NCBI RefSeq assembly: GCF_043641665.1
Contig: NC_092190.1
Location: 14,568,048 to 14,632,047, forward strand
Reading direction: 5' to 3'
DNA: 64,000 bases
Origin: Enoplosus armatus
Taxonomy: Eukaryota; Chordata; Actinopteri; Centrarchiformes; Enoplosidae
Numbering within the stretch: the stretch's first letter is position 1; each line of letters opens with the position of its first letter. The notes under the pieces are model-generated. The model was not told the DNA's origin. It was given only the letters and a program-made list of their open reading frames with translations, and searched no databases. The position numbers were made by a program, and so were the translations under genes. This document shows positions 24,672 to 41,429 of this stretch, piece after piece.

Positions 24672-24744
24672 GCCCGGATAGCTCAGTCGGTAGAGCATCA
24701 GACTTTTAATCTGAGGGTCCAGGGTTCAAGTCCCTGTTCGGGCG
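24672..24744 (+). tRNA. tRNA-Lys (anticodon TTT)
   Basis: A 73-base cloverleaf without intron. Acceptor arm GCCCGGA pairs with TTCGGGC (one G-U), with discriminator G. The A box (TAGCTCAGTCGG) and B box (GGTTCAAGTCC) are intact. The anticodon loop CTTTTAA presents TTT, so it reads AAA/AAG lysine codons. A T6 run starting near 24751 is a Pol III terminator. It lies about 120 bases from the start codon of the divergent coiled-coil gene. Confidence 0.98.
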
Positions 24745-25164: not shown

Positions 25165-25224
25165 CTAGGTGTTTGTGCAGGTAAAATGGCAACACTGAAG
25201 ACATACTGTATCTGACTGGCAAAG

Positions 25225-27127
25225 ATGGAGCGAATTATCCTCTTGTGTGTGGTTTCCACCTGTCTCTCGTCTGTACATGCACAGGTAAATATGCATGGGA
25301 TTGGAGTGGGACTGCGACTTTAAAGAAAGATTTTTAAAGTTCAACAGAATTGCAAACAATTTTGTCTGTCTTTTTTGCAGAAGTTTTTGTTCAGCCCAAA
25401 ATGGGGCCCCATTGGCTATAAAGGTAAATACAATTTGGATTTGATCTAAATGTTAATACAAGTGTGACAGCTGTAAAAACGCTCACGCTAACTAAAACTC
25501 TTCTTTTTAAGAGCGTGAAGAGCATGGTGACGGGACAGCAATGGATGAAATCATTAAAACTAATGAATTCCAAGGTAAGTTGCACACAATTTACTTGAGT
25601 TGTTTTGCAATTTATACAACATACTGTAACAAATTAGCTCCTGTTGCCCCATGTAGACTTATTTATTTTTCCCTCATTTCTGTCTCAGCTTCCCGAATCA
25701 TAGACGGCACTACCAGTCTCAGGGAGGGAGACATTGCTGTGTCCTCTGGAAGGCGCTCCAAAGTCTGCTTCGCTCGTAGCTGCCTCTGGTCTAAGTCAGT
25801 GGATGGACACGTCTACATTGCATATAGGCTCTCACCTGAATACTGTATGTTATTAGTTATTGTTATTTAGTTTTCTAAGTGTAAATAAATGCAATAAATT
25901 ACAGTTTGATACTTTAGATTCACCAACTTTGTATTTGAGGATTTATAAATTGTCTGTTCCCTGTCCACAGCTGAAATGGAGACAAAGATGATAAAGAAAG
26001 GGATGGAAAGCGTAGAGAAAGGTACCTGCGTGCGGTTTGTTCCTCGGACTCACCAGCGAGACTACATCGACATCCAGTCAAAGTCTGGGTGAGAGCCTTT
26101 GCTTGGAAAGTTTGTTCCCATAACGTGTTTTAAAAATGTTACTCTTTCTAAAAAATGTTTTTCTGTGTAGAAATATGAGTATAATTTAAATGGATAAAAC
26201 TTCAATTGCTTCCTCCTCCTTCCTCCTCTATAGTACAGCACTAAACTCACGCCTTGAAGTTGTTCTAATGATATGTCCTGTGTCTGGGTGTGTGTGTGTG
26301 TTAATCCAGGTGTTGGTCCTACCTTGGTGCACGTGGTGGAAGACAGACCGTGTCTCTCCAGAGCCCTGACTGCCTCCGGACTGGAGTGATTTCCCATGAA
26401 TTCATGCATTCCCTGGGCTTTGTGCACGAGCAGTCCCGCTTTGACCGGGACAAATATGTCACCATCATGTGGCCAAACATTTGGAGGGGTAAATTCAAAG
26501 GGGCGGGAAGGGGGGTGGCATTGGTTAATGAGATCTCCACAAATGGTACATTAAAGAATTTATAATGAACTATATTTCTATAATAAAGATAGAAAATGCA
26601 TAACATTGTAAATTAAAACAACAAAAATAAAATGAATGCTGACAAATATTAAGTATAAAATATATTTTCTAATTTCCAACAGATCGGTTGAGGAACTTTG
26701 AGAAATTCAAGACTGACAACTTGGACCTGCCATATGACTATGGCTCAATCATGCACTTTGGGATGTAAGTAACAATTTGATCACTCAATACATTACAGTG
26801 TGGTTGATGTATTATAATGTAACATGTAATATGTATATGTTTAGGTATGCCTACTCTCAGGATGGGGAGCCAACCATCATTCCTAAGACCGGCAACAGCA
26901 AGGACATAAAGCTGGGCCAGGCATCGACTCTCAGCCACATTGACAAGCTGAAAATCAACAAGCTTTATAAGTGTGGTGGGTGCCAAACATTCTTAACTAA
27001 CATGCAGTAATTATTTCAGAGCAAGTAACCGTATCGCAAAATGGTCAAATAATACTAGACATGTCAGTTGTTGTCAAATGTCTGATTCACTTCTGTCTCT
27101 CTCGCAGGTGGCAAGGATGACTACTAA
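25225..27127 (+). CDS. Astacin-family metalloprotease A (six-cysteine teleost type), 9 exons
   Basis: Exons 25225-25284, 25381-25423, 25512-25574, 25689-25844, 25971-26088, 26310-26488, 26683-26764, 26845-26975 and 27108-27127 give 283 aa. Signal peptide about 1-19; propeptide with a REGD aspartate-switch word; astacin domain from about residue 75. The extra N-terminal Cys pair (VCFARSCLW) is that of teleost C6AST / hatching-enzyme relatives. The zinc motif is complete: H176-E177-FM-H180-SLGFV-H186-E. The Met-turn reads S-I-M-H-F, with Phe where astacins normally have the zinc-coordinating Tyr, and the residue after the glycine is Met rather than the usual Arg. It should be secreted; substrate unknown. 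It is a tandem paralogue of the next gene. The Tyr loss may lower or alter activity. Confidence 0.9.
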
Positions 27128-27200
27128 ATAAACTGAATTGAGGTGAAACTGGACTGAAAGCTAATATAATAAACTGATGTTAAATCATGGAAACTATTTC

Positions 27201-27206
27201 AATAAA
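27201..27206 (+). terminator. Poly(A) signal of astacin A
   Basis: AATAAA 74 bases after the stop codon. Confidence 0.7.
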
Positions 27207-27219
27207 GAAGCTTTCTATC

Positions 27220-28155
27220 AGCATTTCTTCTGTGTGCATGCAATTGTGTTTGTTTTAATAAGACATGATGTTGATAAGGTTGAGAATGTAGTAAAGAGAA
27301 AAAGGAGTAGGAACACTAGATAGTGTCCTTATCCACCCAATATATACAGCACAAGTAATTTCATGAATCAGTAAGAGATGACTTGAATGTGAAGAAAATG
27401 CAATCCTACTTACATGCATGCGTGTATACATAATACTGCAGTGAAATAAAGATTTTGAAGAATTAAGTCATGGGTGACATGATCACATTAAACAGACATA
27501 AAGGAGAAATAGTTGTGAGTATGTTTTAATCAGAGGAAGACTGAAGAAAACGCTTCCCTCGATTAAAAAAGAGCCAGTTTGTGGTATGACGAGACCATGT
27601 TTAAAACCATGCACCCGTAATTCAGATACAGACATTTAATAGCACTAATGTTCTTGCAGTAACCATGGAGGCAAGATTTCATAAACTGCTAATACGTGGG
27701 ATTCTTTCCTCAGCCATTGCCTTTCAAATTGCCCCCTTGATAAAGATAGAAAGAATATTTGGAGAAGGATAAGGTTTTGTTTTTATATATTTACCCATGT
27801 GACAAAATGATTGTTGTCAGGACAGTTATCAACTGATACTTCATCACAAAATCACTGGTTGCCAGTACAGTCAGACACAAATTGCTGGTCTGTTGGACTG
27901 GGTGGACAGTTATTCTCCTGATAGCAACTGCTGAGTTGTAGCACCTCCAGCAGCAAAACACCTTTAAGTGTCTCATTTATGAAAGTGCTGAATCTAACAT
28001 GCGCTAAGTACGGGGCACAGGTGAAGGTCAGCATCAGGTCCACCTGTTACGGATCAGCAATGGACTTGAGTAAATTGCATACACTGGATGATGAGGGGTC
28101 TTAATCATGCTTCATCATAGAACATGTGCCCAATCAGTACAGAGCACTGGAGGAG
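27220..28155. other. Spacer between the two astacin genes
   Basis: About 0.9 kb with no supported gene. Open frames on the minus strand near 27790-28040 lack splice context or a known domain. I see no remnant of a third astacin copy. Confidence 0.6.
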
Positions 28156-28162
28156 AAGTGGG

Positions 28163-28169
28163 TATATAG
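28163..28169 (+). promoter_or_regulatory. TATA box of second astacin gene
   Basis: TATATAG lies 65 bases upstream of the ATG at 28234, at nearly the same distance as in astacin A. Confidence 0.6.
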
Positions 28170-28233
28170 GAGTTCATTTAGCTCTTGCAAGACTGCGGAC
28201 TGAAACTGGTATACCAGTCTGAAAAACACAGCA

Positions 28234-29885
28234 ATGCATTCTACCATGATCCTTCTGGGTATCTTGTTTGGCCTGCTGACCCAGGCGTACACTCTACCTG
28301 TTAAGGTCAGTACCAAGAGAAAATATTTTAGAGCAAATGTCCCTTTTGGTCTTGTCATGCTTTGCAAAATGTATTATAATGCACCTTTTGTATTAAAGAA
28401 TTCTACGGGAGTACATGAGGGAAAAGTGAGGTTGAAAAGAAAATATTCAGGTGGGCTCATGGAAAAGGTTTCTTTTACATGCACTTCATCATGCATGCAG
28501 ACAACACTTTGATGATTAAAATTCAGATTATGGAAAATAGAGGAAGACTATTAAATCTGTCTTTGTTTTTGTGTTCAGATGAAATTACAGAGCGTGATGA
28601 AATGAATGCAATGGACCAAATCCTGGAAGTCAATCGCAGTAAGTAAGCTGTAAATTATATAAAATTGTACTGATTTAAGTTAAATTCAGTATAGTAGTTT
28701 AGTATATTTTTTCTCATCAGGGTTGCGAGCCCCCCGAGGACTGTCATTCAGAGAGGGAGATATTGCCACCTCATATGTACGGAGCGCCATAACGTGCCCT
28801 GGCAATGCCTGTCTGTGGCCTAAATCAGTTGACGGATTTGTTTATGTCCCCTTCATGCTCTCTCCGCTTTATGGTATGAATCCACAAATTTAAAGAGGTG
28901 TTGCAAAGGCATTGGTAGTTCAAATCTTTCTGTGTAATTTGAATTTAAATTTTTTTCATGGTAGACGACATGGAGAGAATCACCATAGAAACTGGGATGC
29001 AAGACATTTCCTCTGGAACGTGTATCAAATTTGTTCCACGCACTCATGAAAGCAGTTTCCTTGATATTCAGCCTAGATATGGGTGAGTATGAGCTTTTAC
29101 ATGCAAAACCTGTCTTGAAATTCATAGTGATATGATTCTTGAGATTTACATTGGGATGATAACACGTCATTTCTGTTCTGTACCCCAAGCTGCTGGTCGT
29201 TTCTGGGGCAGACAGGAGGAAGCCAGACCCTGTCACTGCAGACTCCTGGGTGCATGTGGTCGGGAGTCGCTGCCCACGAGTTCATGCACGCCCTCGGCTT
29301 TGTACACGAGCAGTCTCGCTCGGACCGAGACCACTATGTCTCAATTGTATGGAAAAACATCATGCCAGGTTAGGATCACCTCCCAACATTATGTTACTGC
29401 ATTCAGAAAGCCTTTTCTTCACCTACTTAATTCTTTTCTCACCAAATAAGTTTCATTACCTTTATCTTTTATGTTTTGACAGACCAAATTCATAACTTCA
29501 GGAAACAGGTGACGAACAATCTCAATAGTCCATATGACTACAACTCTGTCATGCACTATGGAAGGTGAGCCGCTCTTTGAGGAAACATAATTGTAGGTTT
29601 TGAATGTTTTGCCAGGGCATCACCATACCATATACTTTATTTATCTTTCATCCAGATATGCCTTCTCTGAAGATGGTGGACCAACAATAATCCCCAGACC
29701 AGATCCTTACATTCCCATTGGGCAGCGAGACGGACCAAGTGCTCTAGATCTTCACAAAATAAATGTCCTGTATAACTGTGGTAGGTGAACTTAAACATAT
29801 ACTGACTGAAAAAAAAAAATCTTTCTTACATTCAAAATGATTAAGTCAATGCTCTCTCTGCTCCCTAACAGGCGTCAACGAGTAA
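28234..29885 (+). CDS. Astacin-family metalloprotease B (six-cysteine teleost type), 9 exons
   Basis: Exons 28234-28305, 28399-28450, 28579-28638, 28721-28873, 28965-29082, 29190-29368, 29483-29564, 29656-29780 and 29872-29885 give 284 aa. Exon 2 is the least certain (weak acceptor) but is needed to keep phase. A signal peptide (about 1-20) and a propeptide with FREGD precede the mature domain, which probably starts near SAITC in the R-SAITCPGNACLW segment. The zinc site is H181-E182-FM-H185-ALGFV-H191-E, and the Met-turn is canonical (S-V-M-H-Y-G-R-Y). Exons 5, 6 and 7 have exactly the lengths of those in astacin A (118, 179, 82), showing tandem duplication. Likely a secreted protease of the hatching-enzyme/nephrosin-like group; the exact subfamily needs a tree. 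Confidence 0.9.
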
Positions 29886-29889
29886 CTGG

Positions 29890-31380
29890 ATCCAGAGTGT
29901 TACATTCTGTAATTCTGTCATGTTCTGTTCAAATCTGCTCTCAGGTCATGTCAGATGTGGAAAATGGGTCATTATGACTTCTGGCCTTGAGTAGATTATA
30001 TGGGCAACATTACCTAATAGCAATTTCATTTTTCTATATTAATATTTTGAATTATCATCACAAATTCTAGTCTGTAGTTTTAGATTGTGTTCAGACAGTT
30101 CTTAGAGTACATTCTACTAATCTGCAATAAAGATGTCATAAGGTGAAATAAAATGGCAAGTAAGAATTGAAAGCTGCATTTCTTATAACTAAATTCAGCC
30201 CTGTGATATGTTTTTTTGTGCCTGCTGCTGCCAGTTAGATCACTGCATCCAATCTCTGAATCAGTTTGTTCCAATTCCTGCCTCCTTCTCAGCTTCTGCT
30301 CACTTTGAATAAAGTAAAATGCAACAGTAAGATTAATGTGTCTGGTTTACACATCTTTTGTCACATCTGTTTCTTGCAGAGGCCTTGCATTGTGGTGCAT
30401 GGGTTTTCTGGTATTGCTTTCAGGTGGAACATATACAGTACTGATGAATTTCAGGCTGACGAGATCCTTTTCTGCTCAAAAACAACAAATAATTCAATCA
30501 TGTTTGACCTTACCCTTCCACTGCACTAAACCCTGTAAGTTTCAGTTTTAAAACTGACAAATCAAACAAAAACAAAGTTTGTTTGCACCGCTGGTCTTTG
30601 TTGTGCTTTCCTGTACCCCTCCAGGGAGCAGCACTTATGAGTGCTCTTATACTGGAATAAACAGCCACATCTTACCTACTCCTTATCCACAGGATTCCAG
30701 GTATCATTTTCTGCTCTTTGCTGCCAAAATAAAGCTGCAATGAAAGAGGAAAAAGAATAAAGGCAAATAAACATTAAATAGGTGAGGAATAGATAGCAGG
30801 AACAGACTGTTAGCGCTGTGGTATGGTGTTAATGGCATGCATCCCTAGTGGTGATGATGTGTGAAAAATATTTATCTTCCAAAACTGGTCTTATTATAAA
30901 TCATCAAATGGTAACAGATAGAATATAAGAAATAATTATTTGTTATTATTATGATCATTATTTTTAATAATTTTATATAAATAAAAAAAACCTTCAATAC
31001 ATTCCTTAAGTAGAACACAAGCTAAATGCACTGACTTCTTATATGTTTTCATTTAGAGGACAATTTCGTTGTTTTGGTCATTTGGTCAGTTGCTTGATTG
31101 TTAATCCCTCAAAGTAAAACATTAAGTGAACTTGATTAATGTCCTGGTTGGAAATATGACTCTTAAACCCTGAAACTTAAACATTTCATCAACTTTTGAA
31201 AAAGTCTTATTTCCATTGGAGCTATGTTATGTTGCACCATCTTTCATTCACTTTGACAGTCCCTTGAATGGCAAACTATAACTAAGTGCTTAGTTTGTCG
31301 TGCTTTGAACAAACTTCATAACTATAAGAGTACATTAGGGAAGAATGTAATTGCTTATTATGGTCATGTGCCCCCCCAGA
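29890..31380. other. Astacin B 3' UTR and spacer before tra2b
   Basis: An AATAAA at 30126-30131 is the likely poly(A) signal of astacin B. The rest is AT-rich with no supported gene. Open frames at 30266-30551 overlap in two frames and show no domain. A more CpG-containing segment from about 31380 to 31588 is the probable tra2b promoter and leader. Confidence 0.55.
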
Positions 31381-31588
31381 ATGGCATCTATCACAGCAGC
31401 CATATCCAACGAAAGCCTGAAGGACGGGAGAGCTAACGTGTGACGTTAACGTTACAAGTTGCTGCTGCAGCGCACACAATACTCTAGTTAGCACACACAT
31501 AAACTGTAGATTGTAGCTAAGCTACCTGGTTAGCACCGGGGCATCAACATCTGTAATTTTAACAGCTATATCCGCTGTGTCTCTTAAA

Positions 31589-34500
31589 ATGAGCGATAAC
31601 GACAAAGGTTATGGCGAGCGGGTACGTATGAGCTTTTTGAAGGCTTTGATTGTAACATTAACGTTTTTATGGAACTAACGTACAAATTAATTGGTTATAC
31701 GGAACTCAAATGGTAGCATAGTCATATTGTGTTGGCTAATACTGGTTAGCTAACATTAGCTAGCTAGCGCAACTCTCCTGTTAAAATCTGTTTCTCAGTT
31801 ATTTTATAAAACATAAGCATGTCGTTTTAATTTTGATTTTGTAATATCAGGTGACTAAAGTGAGCCACAGGCAATGCCACGTCACAGTAAACAATAAGCA
31901 CCTGCTAATTTTCCTTAGCTAGCTGGCTAACCTTAGCTTATCAACAATAGCTAGGCCACAGGCCCTGTCTGTCAGTATGGGAATTGCTGTGCAAAGGCTG
32001 CGATGTTGATGCCAACTTTAGCCAACCAACCCAGTTATTAACCAAACCTGTGGATAATCACAAAGAGGGTTTGGATGTTTATCATTAACATTAATTATTT
32101 ATCAGCATAATGTTATCTGTGTTGGCAAATAGCGTTATTAAAGCTTCAACATCTTGAATATAGCTAACGTTAACTGTTAATTCAATAGACCGACATTAAT
32201 TGAACGAATTAAATAAAATAATAGTAATTGTAATATGGCAGTAATTTGCATTTGGAGACAGTAGATAAGATCTCGATTGAGTGATGTGAGTAAACGTTTG
32301 CTAACGTTAATCTTATAATGTCATTATGGTTTCTCAAATGTTGGGCGCGGCAACTTGTGTCAATCAAGCGACATAATGTGTTAAACATTTTAACCATTTG
32401 AAACGAAAACGAACGACCTCAAGATTTCTTCTTATTCGTGTGCATTTACTCGCACATTTAACCCCTACAATGCCAATGCAAAACTGGCATATCGTTGCAT
32501 CTTGGCTAGTAATATTAGTGAAAAACCTCTCTAGAGTAATAGCTATACCCCATATACTGTTCTTTGCAAGTTGCATCCGGCATGCACAGCACTATGAAGG
32601 CCACACTTCAATGACTTCTTACTTCCTTGACGTTTTTTAGTGCAAGTAAATGAACAGTACAAGGCCACGAGTATATGTTTGTGTGTGCCACTGTGTTTAA
32701 ACAGTTTCTCTTTCAAGAAAATGTCTATTTCTTTAATCTTGGTATATCTAACGCTTTGTGCTGAAGATTGGCTCCCATGGTGTCATGTCTGTCAAGTCAA
32801 TACAAATGAGTGGAAGCAGAATCTTGAGGTCGTTTGGGCTACTATAAGCCAAAATTTATTAAAAAAAAAAAAAGAAAAAAAAGAAATGAAGGCACTGTTG
32901 GTGGGGTGTAATCTTGAGTAGGTTTTATTCACATTCAGTGGTTTGATATACACTTTCATGCCTAAGAGGCCACTTGACAGAAATTATGTCAACAGGATCC
33001 ATTTAAGAAGAATCATAGCTCATATTGTTCTTTACCATCTTGTGAATGTGTACATGTATTGGACGATATTGTTTGTTCTGTTTTCCTGATGCAGACAGAC
33101 TCAGATGTCCGACACCACAGTGTCTAGATACAACCAGAATGGAAAAATTAGATGAACGTGTGTTCACATGCTTACCTTTCAGTTTTGGCAGCAGTTTTCA
33201 AGATTATCACACCTTCCTTTGTTAATGTTCTCATCTAAGATGCTTCATACGCTTCTAACTCAAAGTTGCCGATAGGACAGTGAACAGTGAATTTAGAACC
33301 ACTGAATGTGAAATATTTATAGAACTAACATTAAAGATTTGTATTATGTGGTCTTAAACATTCCCATGCATGTCATAAGATCGTAATAACACATTAAAAG
33401 TTGAATGAGGGTGCAGTTTTAATTGTAGTCATATATTCTTCATCCTTTTCTTTTTCATAAAGGTTAAGATTGGACGAAGAAAATGCGGAAGAAGTCTCAT
33501 GTCCACTTTATTTTCAATAATATGAAGCTCAGATGTGTGAAGCTGAATTGTTGAATGCATGCTAAATCATGAGGAGGGAAGAAGTGTGGGCAGTGTGTGA
33601 GATGGGGGAAGTAAGAAGAAGTAAGACAATTGAAGAAAGAAGAATAATGTGAAGTAATGAAGTTACAGAAATGAAGTTAAGGAAGTAATCTGGATATGGT
33701 CACTGTGCTAAGTAATCTTCTGCTCTGTTTGTCAAATGCGTGCATGTTTTTGTTATTGAATACACATATTAGTTTAAATCATTGCAATTTTTACACAACT
33801 GACACATTTCTGTTTTTTCATTATGTTGACAATTTAATTATATTGATTAATGTAATCATATTGATGTCATTTGATTCATGGATACAAAAATAGCATTAAC
33901 CTGCATTCCTAATCCACAATCCTAAATTCTGTTCTTTTCTGTATTTTTCACAGGATAGTCTTAATTCTTTACTACATAGCATTATTTGGGCAAAATTTCT
34001 CAGTTTGTCCTCTCATTGGTGCTGATAAGAGGTGTGTTGGTGTGTGTGTGGTTCGTTCAGGAGTCTCGCTCTGCATCCAGGAGCGTGAGTCCACGGGGCT
34101 CAGGGAAGTCAGCAAGCCGCTCCCCGGCTCGCTCACCTGCTCGTTCAAAAGAAGGCTCCCGCCACTCCCACTCTAAATCTCGGTCTCGGTCCAGGTCGAA
34201 ATCTGGGTGAGTGACAATTGTTTTGGAGTTACAGTGGCGTAAAACTCTTTCCTTGTGGACAGACTGGATATATAAATGCTTGTCTGTCTTTTGAATCAGT
34301 GGTAGAGAAATTGGATGTGAACAACCATAGAGCCAATATGGATGTTGAACTGTTTCTGTCCATACAGCTCCCATTCCCACCGTGGCTCACGTAGACACTA
34401 TAGCCGATCTCGCTCCCGCTCAAGGTCCTATCGCCGCCGATCTCACAGCAGGTCCTACAGTGGAGAGCGCCGGCGCAGGAGCCATAGCCGCTCACCCATG

Positions 34501-35798
34501 TCCAACCGCCGCAGGCACATCGGCAACCGCGTAAGTGCTCAATGGCCCTTGTGGGTGCAAGACGTTTGTCATAATTTAAAAGTCAATCGGCTTTGCCTGT
34601 GTTCTTCCTGCATAAGTATTTTTATCTTAGATCCTAAACACTGCTATATACTAATACAGAATTTAATAATAATACAGAAACTCAATTGTAAAGAAAACCC
34701 TACCTTTTTGTTTTGAGTATTAAGGACTCTTAATTGTTAATTACATTAAAGTGTATGATCATATCAGCGTCTTAATATCTTTGCAGGCTAATCCAGATCC
34801 AAACTGTTGCCTGGGTGTGTTTGGCCTGAGCTTGTACACAACAGAGCGGGATCTGAGGGAAGTCTTCTCTAAATACGGCCCCCTGGCGGATGTCTGTATT
34901 GTGTATGACCAGCAGTCGAGGCGCTCCAGGGGCTTTTCTTTTGTTTACTTTGAGAACAAAGATGACGCTAAAGAGGTATAAAATTTGTGATGACAGAGGC
35001 CCATGTCAAATCTGAATATTTTCTGGGCCTAAAGAGGTCATTTATATGTTTGTTCACTGTCAGGCAAAGGAGCGAGCCAATGGCATGGAGCTGGATGGTC
35101 GTAGGATCAGGGTCGACTTCTCCATCACAAAAAGACCTCATACCCCAACCCCTGGAATCTACATGGGCCGGCCTACATAGTAAGCCACCTGACACGTGCT
35201 GAGTGTTTGTGTGGATCAATTAGGTAAAATAAAACACAATTGCTCCATTTATTAGATGTGATCTGATGTGTTGAGCTTTTTTTCATTAAATGTTTCGATC
35301 TAATTTCTCAAAGGAAACTGAAAATAAAACAAAACAATGAAATTGTTAAGTAGGAAACCCAAACAAAATCTCAACCTTGTACTGTCTTCTGTGTAGTGGT
35401 GGAGGTGGTCCAAGCGGTCCTCGACGCTCTTCACGTGACTACGACCGTGGGTATGACCGTGGATACGACAGAGGTGGCTATGATCGCTATGATGACAGGG
35501 ACTACTACAGATCATATAGGTGACTATCTCCATTGTGATGCAGTAATCCTACAGATTATCAGTGGTTTCCTGTTCAGTTTCTACTAACATGGAAAAAAGA
35601 AAACTAATAATTTTGCCTTGTTTCAGAAGGCGATCTCCGTCACCATACTACAGAGGGGCTTACAGGTCTCGATCCAGATCGCGGTCTTATTCTCCCCGTG
35701 AGTCCTTTTCATAAAGCGTTTTATTGAGGCCTTCAACAGGTTGCAGTGTGTTGGGGGTTTGTCTGATGACTCTGCTTTGGTTCACAGGTCGCTATTGA
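31589..35798 (+). CDS. tra2b: Transformer-2 beta splicing activator, complete, 8 coding exons
   Basis: Exons 31589-31621, 34061-34206, 34368-34530, 34787-34975, 35064-35179, 35397-35519, 35627-35697 and 35788-35798 join to 283 aa (human TRA2B 288). An N-terminal Arg/Ser-rich domain (residues about 12-112) is followed by one RRM (about 115-195) with RNP2 LGVFGLS and RNP1 RGFSFVYF, the conserved linker [17 protein letters not shown], a Gly/Tyr/Asp-Arg repeat ([11 protein letters not shown]), and a C-terminal RS domain ending SPRRY. The [14 protein letters not shown] segment fits TRA2B better than TRA2A. The nuclear protein binds GAA-rich exonic enhancers and promotes exon inclusion. Intron 1 (2.4 kb) carries a candidate autoregulatory poison exon. 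igf2bp2 follows on the same strand, as in human. Confidence 0.97.
32412..32834. repeat. 15-base perfect inverted repeat in tra2b intron 1
   Basis: AACGACCTCAAGATT at 32412-32426 is the exact reverse complement of 32820-32834, about 390 bases apart. It may be the ends of a small mobile element or an RNA hairpin. No target-site duplication was recognised. Confidence 0.5.
32861..32883. repeat. A-rich tract
   Basis: A13 interrupted by single G residues. It may be a simple repeat or the tail of a retroposed element. Confidence 0.6.
32929..33311. repeat. Second 15-base perfect inverted repeat in tra2b intron 1
   Basis: TCACATTCAGTGGTT at 32929-32943 pairs exactly with AACCACTGAATGTGA at 33297-33311. 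It lies directly downstream of the first pair and just upstream of the candidate poison exon. Confidence 0.5.
33463..33684 (+). other. tra2b: Candidate tra2b poison (stop-containing) cassette exon
   Basis: A strong pyrimidine tract and AAG acceptor end at 33462, followed by a purine-rich segment packed with GAA/AGAA words (AAGAAG, GAAGAAAGAAGAA). Read in phase from exon 1 it gives 20 codons, then TGA at 33523-33525. Possible GT donors follow at 33611, 33621, 33654 and 33685; the 3' end given assumes the last. Vertebrate TRA2B genes are known to carry a conserved GAA-rich poison exon in this intron, bound by Tra2-beta itself to limit its own level. Confidence 0.75.
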
Positions 35799-36265
35799 AC
35801 GTTGCTGTCAAGCCCTTCCTCTTCCCAAGCACAGACAGGAAATGTTTCTGAGTGGTATGATTGATTTCAGAATAGATCTTCTTTCTTAAGGTGATCATCA
35901 CACTTCTGTTTGCTAATGTCTATGACCAGTAAATGTATACTGAGATCAGTTGTGAAGCAGTGTCACTGGACATGACCCAAGCTGTCCCCTCATGGTTTTA
36001 ATTTTAACTGTATAGGCAACATCTGCCGTAAATAATATATTAATGTTTTGATGTTTTTTTGTATACAATTGAGGGAATATTCATCTTTGAACAGATTAAA
36101 AGGAAGATGCACTTTTTCACTTTGACTCATGTCCTTCCTTGCAACACTTCTACATTGCCTTTAACCATTTACTGTTGCAAGGCTGTTTTGATACAGATGA
36201 GGATGTATTAAAGCCTTCATCTTATCGCATTGCTATGCGCTAATTTCTACAGAATCGCTCAACTA

Positions 36266-36271
36266 AATAAA
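36266..36271 (+). terminator. Likely distal poly(A) signal of tra2b
   Basis: AATAAA about 470 bases after the stop codon. An earlier ATTAAA near 36208 could also be used. Confidence 0.55.
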
Positions 36272-37092
36272 AACTGGTGAGCCACTATTAAACGACCAAA
36301 TCAACAACTGAATGATGTTGAGCTCACATATCTAGTCTAAAATGCCTTCCTCTTATAAACTATGTATCCAAGTTACTAGTTGAGCTCTTGTAAGTAAACT
36401 TGAAAATCATTACCTAGAATCATCATCCCGCTACTTGAAATAAACTAGTGTTTCAACACGATTTATACAACTGATATTGAGTTGGTGTGATGGTACGTGA
36501 ATGGGTATGGCTAAATGCATTAGTAAAGTTCCAGCTTATCTAATAACCCCTGGGAAAAATATTGAGAGAGCCACATATTTTTTTAGGGCCTGTGTCCACG
36601 TAGGGTTATTTTCTGTCAGAAAAGCCTGGCAGGGTCTCAGACCTTTAAATCTTTTCCCACATCTCAGATTCATCAGTTCAAATAATGATGTGAAACAAAT
36701 TGGCAATTCAGTCTGATCATGAGGCTTTTATTCCCTGACTAGAAACTATAAATCTGTCATTAAATGCCACTGCTTATCAGGCAGGCAGGCACAACTTTAA
36801 ACTATACATATCTATACATACACACTGTACTCGCCATGAGGTGATGCAAGACCTGCCGAGCAGCGTCTGGCTGTGAGGGTCTGAGGTCCGACATCTACCC
36901 CTACTGGTCACAGAGGAGACCAAACTTGTTCCAGCATCCATCACAGACGACACAGTTCAGAACATGATAAACTGCATGACTTGTTGGAGTCTGAGTTTAT
37001 TGTAGTTTTTCAATTTTTGCCAGTGGTGGAAAAAAAAAGCTCACAAATCTTCAAGTTAAAGAAGAGCAGTAAAAACAGGCTTCTTCTTTACG

Positions 37093-40022: not shown

Positions 40023-41429
40023 ATGAACAAACTATATGTTGGGAATTTAAGTCCTTCGGTCACTGTCGAGGACTTGAAGCAGCTCTTTGGGGAGAGGAAG
40101 CTGCCAGTGGCCGACCAGGTCCTACTGAAATCCGGCTATGCTTTTGTGGACTTCCCCGACCAGAACTCGGCCATAAAGGCTATAGAGACTCTTTCTGGTA
40201 AGTGTGGATTTGATAAGTGATGCTGCTGGTGACAGGAGGGGGAAAAATTCACAGCGGGTCAAACTGCAAGATCAGGTTAAAAACACCAAAAGCTCGGCGT
40301 GTCCGAAGTGTGAAATATTAATCATTGCTTGTGTTATTTCTTTATTTGCTCGGGACGGTGTTTTGCGATCACATCCGTGTGCCATCAGAGTTTAGATGAA
40401 CGCTCAGCAATGCACGCTCCAGCCCAAAAATTGGATAAATTATCGATCACAGGACACACTCGGGGCTTTAGTGCCCGTTTGGCTAAAGAAAACACGAGCC
40501 GTCGTAACGCTATTAACGCGCACAATAACCTATATTTTGGAGATTCCGATAGTGTGGGGCGCTACTTTGCAATCACCCGCTGGAATGTATGGGATGGTCT
40601 GATGGTTCGGGTAGGCATAATTATTTTTCACTTATTTTTTATCTTGATTTTATTGAAGAGAGCAGAGCGAAGCGACCGCGGAAAACTTGTCAGATCCATG
40701 TTCCTCTGGTGTCTGGGTATGTTTTTACGAGGTGTCTTGGAGGTGGGTCACGGGGGTCCGGAGGAAAGAGCTAATAAACAGGTAGCTGAGGGGGGACGAG
40801 GTGAGACGCTAATTCCGTGCTGCGCCAGGCCACTCATAATAGTAACGAAAACCCGTGTTCAAGCTCCGCCGAGGAGCGCTTCAAATTCACCTCCGGTCGG
40901 CTCAACACGGAGAATTAAGAGACACCTACCTAGAATAGAAACAGTACAAGTCATTCTCCTTTCAAAACCATCTCTTCTTTGATGTTGCATTCTTTACTGA
41001 GAGCAGGAAAAAAAAAATACCCCTCATTGCACTGTGAGGGTTGTGGGAGTGGAAAGCATGGCTGCCCGTTTCCCCCCATACTATATAAGCTTATCATGCT
41101 ATATTTTGGCGCCGATTCCTCCGATTGTGACCCTCAAAATGTCCCACTGTGGTTGTTTTAATCTAAACATACCCAGTTTATCCGCCGCACAACGCGCCCG
41201 TGTAGTGTACTTTTTTTAGGGAGGGGGGGTGGGGGGGGGGGGATCTGTTTGAATGGGGACGCACCTACTTGGTGAAGTGATTCAAAGTGTTGCTGTGTAG
41301 GCCTACCAGCTTGCATTGTTCCTCTCATGCACACACAGCTAATGTTACACTATCAATTTTCCCTACAGGTAAAGTTGAATTACACGGAAAGGTGATAGAG
41401 GTAGACTACTCTGTTCCCAAAAAACTAAG
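40023..41429 (+). CDS. igf2bp2: IGF2 mRNA-binding protein 2, first two coding exons only (partial)
   Basis: Exon 1 (40023-40197, phase 1 donor) and exon 2 (41369-41429, ending AG at phase 2) encode about 78 residues, starting [11 protein letters not shown] and ending YSVPKKLR. This is the first RRM of the IMP/VICKZ family: RNP2 LYVGNL near residues 4-9, RNP1-like SGYAFVDF, then the conserved [15 protein letters not shown]. Identity to human IGF2BP2 is high along the whole segment, and tra2b lies upstream on the same strand as in human 3q27. The full protein has two RRMs and four KH domains and binds, stabilises and localises mRNAs, including IGF2, in cytoplasmic RNPs. Exon 3 (expected to start with SRKIQIRNIPP-like codons) is not found before the window ends. 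A fish-specific 'a' or 'b' copy cannot be told apart. Confidence 0.95.
41223..41242 (+). repeat. G-rich run (G7-T-G12) in igf2bp2 intron 1
   Basis: A near-continuous G tract about 130 bases upstream of exon 2, on the coding strand. It could form a G-quadruplex in DNA or pre-mRNA. Run length may be imprecise. Confidence 0.8.

What the first reader, a model, noticed from the sequence alone, without database searches (positions are those of the whole stretch)
33463..33684. GAA-rich poison exon inside tra2b intron 1
Seen: strong acceptor, in-frame TGA after 20 codons, dense GAA/AGAA words, several GT donors. Known: mammalian TRA2B limits its own level through a GAA-rich stop-containing exon in the same intron. 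Inferred: this fish gene keeps the same feedback loop, with Tra2b binding its own pre-mRNA and routing it to nonsense-mediated decay.
Basis: partly seen in the sequence, partly recalled or inferred. Interest (0 to 1): 0.75.

Follow-up and report, generated by a model that had tools for sequence, protein, structure and literature searches.

The report
Fish version of TRA2B poison exon
Inside the first intron of a fish splicing-factor gene lies a stop-containing exon recognisably related to the one mammals use to limit the same gene, so the finding is real but mostly expected; this copy appears to have lost the exon end that a sister gene in the same genome still has.

Summary
At 33463 there is a good acceptor, TGA follows 20 codons in frame with exon 1, and GAA density (22 per 222 nt) is the highest on either strand of the window. 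Conservation could be tested. The same 580-Mb genome has a second tra2b-like gene on C23 and a tra2a-like gene on C25. Intron 1 of the window gene aligns to the C23 intron over 33440-33711 (E 1e-9; score 32, maximum 23 in 1000 shuffles). Three oligos published for the mouse Tra2b poison exon, chained in order, score best in the 64 kb at this segment. I read it as the fish orthologue of TRA2B exon 2. The 3' end needs correcting: C23 offers a 276-nt exon, the mammalian length, with donor GG|GTATGA; the aligned window bases are GG|ATATGG, so this copy would need another donor (33611/33621 score best). Tra2b-driven inclusion is inferred. Decay by NMD is inferred and contested: in HCT116 cells the human exon-2 RNA was nuclear and not raised by blocking NMD (PMC4848834, passages). 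No RNA data were available. New member of a known kind.

The parts
31589..31621 (+). tra2b exon 1, coding part (MSDNDKGYGER), ends in phase 0, donor CGG|GTACGT
33440..33711 (+). Block of intron 1 that aligns with intron 1 of the C23 tra2b-like gene (L014:6442-6759), 62.6% over 326 columns
   Evidence: E 1.1e-9; shuffle tests
33443..33462 (+). Polypyrimidine tract and acceptor AG of the poison exon
   Evidence: 9.9 bits, second of 139 in intron 1
33463..33684 (+).
33523..33525 (+). In-frame stop TGA after 20 codons; 85 nt or more before any of the four candidate exon ends
   Evidence: translation; distance counted from the sequence
33523..33546 (+). Match to the mouse Tra2b poison-exon ddPCR probe (22 matches, 2 mismatches, one 2-nt gap)
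   Evidence: score 35, next best in the window 26
33476..33684 (+). Array of 22 GAA words (likely Tra2 sites): 11 before and 11 after 33611
33604..33608 (+). G-run GGGGG at the end of the stretch matched by the mouse reverse oligo (TGTGTGAAGTGGGG); C23 also has ATGGGGGAAG, but neither alignment pairs the two runs
33611..33616 (+). Candidate donor GAA|GTAAGA, exon of 148 nt
   Evidence: 7.0 bits
33621..33626 (+). Candidate donor GAA|GTAAGA, exon of 158 nt
   Evidence: 7.0 bits
33654..33659 (+). Candidate donor GAA|GTAATG, exon of 191 nt, inside a 15-nt word GAAGTAATGAAGTTA shared with C23
   Evidence: 3.7 bits in both copies
33685..33690 (+). Candidate donor GAA|GTAATC, exon of 222 nt
   Evidence: 3.3 bits
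33694..33699 (+). ATATGG, aligned with the C23 donor GTATGA that gives 276 nt; no GT here
34061..34206 (+). Next coding exon of tra2b (ESRSASRS...), acceptor 7.0 bits
31589..35798 (+). tra2b coding gene: 8 coding exons, 283 residues plus stop

Best explanation
33463 onward is the fish orthologue of the poison exon (exon 2) of mammalian TRA2B, in the same intron, between MSD..GER and ESRS... As Tra2 proteins rise they bind the GAA array, strengthen recognition of the acceptor and pull the exon into the mRNA; translation then stops after 31 codons and no full-length Tra2b is made, so the protein limits itself. The RNA is then removed by NMD or kept in the nucleus. Shown here: homology, position, acceptor, stop, GAA array, conservation above flanking intron. 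Inferred: inclusion, Tra2 dependence, fate of the RNA, and which donor is used.
For: Position, phase and stop. Homology with intron 1 of the C23 gene, restricted to 33440-33711: BLAST E 1.1e-9; score 32 against a maximum of 23 in each of two sets of 1000 shuffles. Of 24 100-nt tiles of intron 1 (31622-34021) the three consecutive tiles 33422-33721 have z 8.9, 3.5, 8.5; the other 21 reach at most 3.2. Mouse Tra2b poison-exon probe best in the window here (35, next 26); three mouse oligos chained in order score 71 here, next 60, over 6396 positions of both strands. GAA 22 per 222 nt, shuffle maximum 14. The tra2a-like gene on C25 has a segment in its intron 1 matching both mouse Tra2a poison-exon primers (scores 36 and 47; best in the window and in the C23 10 kb 24-28), so the family pattern holds in this genome. 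Mammalian mechanism: PMC11791180, PMC3240583 (abstract and passages).
Against: No transcript evidence. The donor aligned with the C23 276-nt end is AT here. Taken singly, the mouse F and R oligos have better matches elsewhere in the window (26 against 16, and 24 against 20). One tile outside the block, 31722-31821, also exceeds its 100 shuffles (16 against 15). The window exon does not align significantly with the C25 intron (16; null 14.3, maximum 23 of 300). C23 itself has a higher-scoring donor at 152 nt (6.9) than at 276 nt (5.8). NMD of the human form was not seen in HCT116 (PMC4848834, passages).
Confidence: 0.85

Rival explanations
1. The window copy is a decaying poison exon: after gene duplication the C23 copy kept the working exon and this one lost its donor, so it is now rarely or never spliced in.
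For: AT at the aligned donor; exon to that point 231 nt against 276; a 27-column gap removes the CCCC arm of a hairpin that C23 can form.
Against: Acceptor is stronger here (9.9) than in C23 (7.7), GAAGAA words are more numerous (6 against 3), and the mouse probe fits this copy better (35 against 23); two 7.0-bit donors are present.
Confidence: 0.1
2. The exon is spliced in but acts by nuclear retention or as a non-coding RNA rather than by NMD.
For: In HCT116 cells human TRA2beta4 was not raised by cycloheximide or two UPF1 siRNAs, was enriched in the nucleus, and bound nucleolin through a GGGG element in exon 2 (PMC4848834 and PMC6003563, passages). A G-run lies in the segment here.
Against: The hairpin reported around the human GGGG is not predicted here (33560-33612: -3.0 kcal/mol, 150 of 200 shuffles fold as well); in C23 it is (-15.9, 16 of 200). 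The human TRA2A exon 2 responds to UPF1 loss (PMC6547761, passage).
Confidence: 0.25
3. The segment is conserved as an intronic regulatory element and the acceptor and stop are incidental.
For: Purine-rich conserved introns exist; a stop is expected by chance in such a frame.
Against: The homologous mouse segment is a demonstrated exon (PMC11791180, PMC3240583); the acceptor AAG|GTT is present at the start of all three tra2-family segments in this genome.
Confidence: 0.04
4. A chance purine-rich stretch with cryptic splice sites.
For: Splice-like sites are common in the intron: 139 AG and 171 GT.
Against: Bounded homology to C23 and to the mouse oligos; shuffle controls.
Confidence: 0.01

Closest known systems
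Mammalian TRA2B exon 2 / uc.138 poison exon (isoform TRA2beta4)
   Same: Same intron and phase, in-frame stop, GAA array, and matching short sequences (mouse probe and chained oligos).
   Different: Mammalian exon is 276 nt (PMC6003563 passage; 714 minus 438 in PMC3240583 passage); here the aligned end is at 231 nt and its donor reads AT. The 100% human-rodent identity that defines uc.138 does not extend here.
C23 tra2b-like gene of the same genome
   Same: Homologous segment in intron 1, acceptor AAG|GTT, in-frame stop (after 28 codons), GAA-rich.
   Different: 276-nt option with a GT donor, a predicted CCCC/GGGG hairpin, fewer GAAGAA words.
TRA2A poison exon (mouse, 306 nt; fish copy on C25)
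   Same: Same intron, GAA-rich, stop after 24 codons in the fish copy. Human TRA2A lists two exon-2 forms sharing one end, about 301 and 79 nt by the printed coordinates (PMC6547761 passage), a precedent for an inner donor.
   Different: No significant DNA alignment between the window exon and the C25 intron.

Membership tests
TRA2B poison exon (exon 2) | Lies in the intron between the MSD..GER exon and the ESRS exon of TRA2B | tested here: met
   gene identity
TRA2B poison exon (exon 2) | Sequence homology with a mammalian TRA2B poison exon | tested here: met
   on three published mouse oligos only; the full mammalian exon was not available
TRA2B poison exon (exon 2) | Stop codon in frame with exon 1 | tested here: met
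TRA2B poison exon (exon 2) | Array of GAA/AGAA Tra2 sites | tested here: met
TRA2B poison exon (exon 2) | Conservation above flanking intron | tested here: met
   against the C23 gene of the same genome; no other species was available
TRA2B poison exon (exon 2) | Working donor at the exon end | tested here: inconclusive
   aligned site is AT; other donors present
TRA2B poison exon (exon 2) | Inclusion raised by Tra2beta protein | not testable with these tools
   needs a minigene or RNA-seq
TRA2B poison exon (exon 2) | Included RNA makes no full-length protein and is degraded or retained | not testable with these tools
   stop lies 85 nt or more before any candidate exon end and further junctions follow, which satisfies the usual NMD rule; fate itself untested

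The most novel reading that the evidence does not exclude
The two tra2b genes of this fish carry differently built feedback exons. The window copy has lost the 276-nt donor and a hairpin arm and now ends at the tandem GTAAGA donors (33611/33621), so half of its GAA sites lie downstream of the donor, where bound SR-type proteins could weaken rather than help it. The pair would then respond to Tra2 dose with different thresholds: a split thermostat after gene duplication.
Probability: 0.25. Interest if true: 0.5.

Novelty: new member of a known kind. Interest (0 to 1): 0.3.

Why it matters
It places the TRA2B feedback exon in a ray-finned fish by direct sequence evidence. It also gives a pair of duplicated genes in which one copy keeps the mammalian exon length and the other has altered donor and hairpin sequence, a natural experiment on which parts of an ultraconserved poison exon are needed. 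Among the listings of my nine literature searches I saw no paper describing the exon in a teleost tra2b; PMC3240583 reports the Tra2a exon in zebrafish from ESTs (passage).

Tried and rejected
Structured RNA: Rfam at gathering thresholds gave 0 matches over 31500-36300. Stray vertebrate copies in public contigs: the pattern shared by mouse probe and window gave 4 viral contigs and 15 genome-contig loci; the 15 have bacterial record titles, 6 of them Algoriphagus; I did not read any of the 19. As a background this is 15 in 257 billion bases. The same pattern in the fish's own genome was asked eight times and never answered, so its genome-wide count is unknown. Direct homology between the window exon and the tra2a segment on C25 was not significant, nor was C23 against C25 (19; null 14.1, maximum 21 of 300). 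My first coding-exon coordinates were wrong and were replaced by the model; the candidate-site and intron figures of those calls do not depend on them. Fish papers seen as passages: PMC11505094 lists tra2b among genes differentially spliced in heated largemouth bass, event not stated; PMC4236441 measures zebrafish tra2b by qPCR and does not use the word poison. PMC4379411 does not mention TRA2 (passages). PMC11829967 was not held.

Considered and set aside: a bare chance stretch, and an intronic element (see rivals). No structure prediction or protein homologue search was used.

Full report
What was checked. The window lies in a 579,668,879-base genome, contig C17; that it is a fish is my inference from the gene content. 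The tra2b model has eight coding exons, 31589-35798, 283 residues. Over 62 RRM residues it shares 58 with human TRA2B. An igf2bp2-like exon follows at 40023 (best PDB match IGF2BP2). Exon 1 ends in phase 0, and joined to 33463 it reads 20 codons to TGA.

More than chance? The GAA count, 22 in 222 nt, is the maximum of the window on either strand; 500 dinucleotide shuffles of intron 1 reached 14. The acceptor is second of 139 in the intron. The stop is not informative by itself. The donors are not significant by themselves.

Conservation. The genome holds two further close relatives, C23 (87% over 62 residues of the RRM) and C25 (77%). C23 shares 54 of those 62 residues with human TRA2B. For C25 no PDB chain passed 1e-25. 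C25 is tra2a-like because its intron 1 matches both mouse Tra2a poison-exon primers and an igf2bp-like exon lies about 10 kb from its RRM exon on the same strand; no igf2bp match was found on C23. That the C17/C23 pair dates from the teleost genome duplication is inference; no tree or gene-order test was made. Intron 1 of C17 aligns with intron 1 of C23 at 33440-33711 (62.6% over 326 columns, E 1.1e-9). The shuffle control gave 32 against a mean of 13.9 and maximum of 23 in 1000; that best local alignment covers 33587-33711, and the 5' part is supported by its own tile (33422-33521, z 8.9). Of the 24 tiles, three adjoining ones stand out and 21 do not (largest z 3.2; 34022-34060 was not tiled). 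The window exon did not align significantly with C25.

Link to mammals. PMC11791180 (section 19) prints a ddPCR assay named Tra2b-CR-LOA; that its three oligos lie in the floxed poison-exon region is my reading of the assay name and method. The probe matches 33523-33546 with score 35, the next best place in the window having 26. The two flanking oligos match at 33485-33496 and 33594-33607 in the right order but each has a better single match elsewhere. Chained in order they score 71 here, next best 60, mean 36.8, over 6396 positions on both strands. In the C23 10 kb the best chain is also at its poison-exon segment (58, next 54), a weak margin.

The exon's 3' end. In C23 an exon from L014:6466 to 6741 with donor GG|GTATGA is 276 nt long, the length reported for human exon 2 (PMC6003563, passage) and implied for mouse (714 minus 438 nt, PMC3240583, passage). 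Both alignments put GG|ATATGG of the window against it. So the window copy lacks a GT there. A caution: in C23 a donor at 152 nt scores higher (6.9 against 5.8), so the 276-nt reading rests on the length match. In the window the best-scoring donors are 33611 and 33621 (7.0), which leave 11 of 22 GAA words in the exon and 11 beyond it. 33654 and 33685 (3.7, 3.3) are not excluded, since the real exon-4 donor scores 3.7. Inner donors have a precedent in human TRA2A (PMC6547761, passage).

A hairpin. C23 L014:6580-6632 folds at -15.9 kcal/mol with a CCCC/GGGG stem (16 of 200 shuffles fold as well, so modest support); 33560-33612 does not (-3.0; 150 of 200). The 27-column gap of the window copy removes the CCCC side. 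Human exon 2 is reported to have a stem-loop ending in GGGG that binds Sp1 and nucleolin (PMC4848834, PMC6003563, passages). Both fish copies contain ATGGGGGAAG, but the alignments do not pair the two runs.

Mechanism. In mammals Tra2beta binds this exon and promotes its inclusion; deleting it in mouse germ cells raises Tra2b and causes azoospermia (PMC11791180, abstract and passages). The same loop is the most likely role here, at 0.85. The fate of the RNA is less sure: the stop satisfies the usual NMD rule, but in HCT116 cells the human RNA was nuclear and did not rise after NMD was blocked (PMC4848834, passages).

Verdict. It is a new member of a known kind, with a possible copy-specific remodelling as the interesting remainder.

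Noticed in passing
window 33934-33954: The strongest acceptor-like site of intron 1 (CTTTTCTGTATTTTTCACAG|G, 13.5 bits) lies 107 nt before the coding exon; by eye, use with exon 1 would stop after 23 codons. The tile holding it is not conserved in C23 (z -0.4).
   Followed up: partly
window 33742; L014:6807; C25 reverse strand 5596: Each of the three tra2 genes has a GCATG (Rbfox-like, recalled) within about 130 nt downstream of its poison-exon segment; C17 and C23 also have one inside (33557; 6544). Not tested against chance; GCATG occurs 71 times on the + strand of the window.
   Followed up: partly
window 24672-24744: tRNA-Lys (TTT) on the + strand.
   Followed up: no
window 25200-29900: Two neighbouring astacin-like genes upstream of tra2b: Pfam Astacin for 26311-26487; the piece tried from the second gene (29195-29365) gave no Pfam hit, its likeness is by eye. 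Possibly hatching enzymes.
   Followed up: partly
L014 6588-6629 (C23): Predicted CCCC/GGGG hairpin inside the C23 poison exon, placing the 152-nt donor (6618) in or near the stem-loop.
   Followed up: partly
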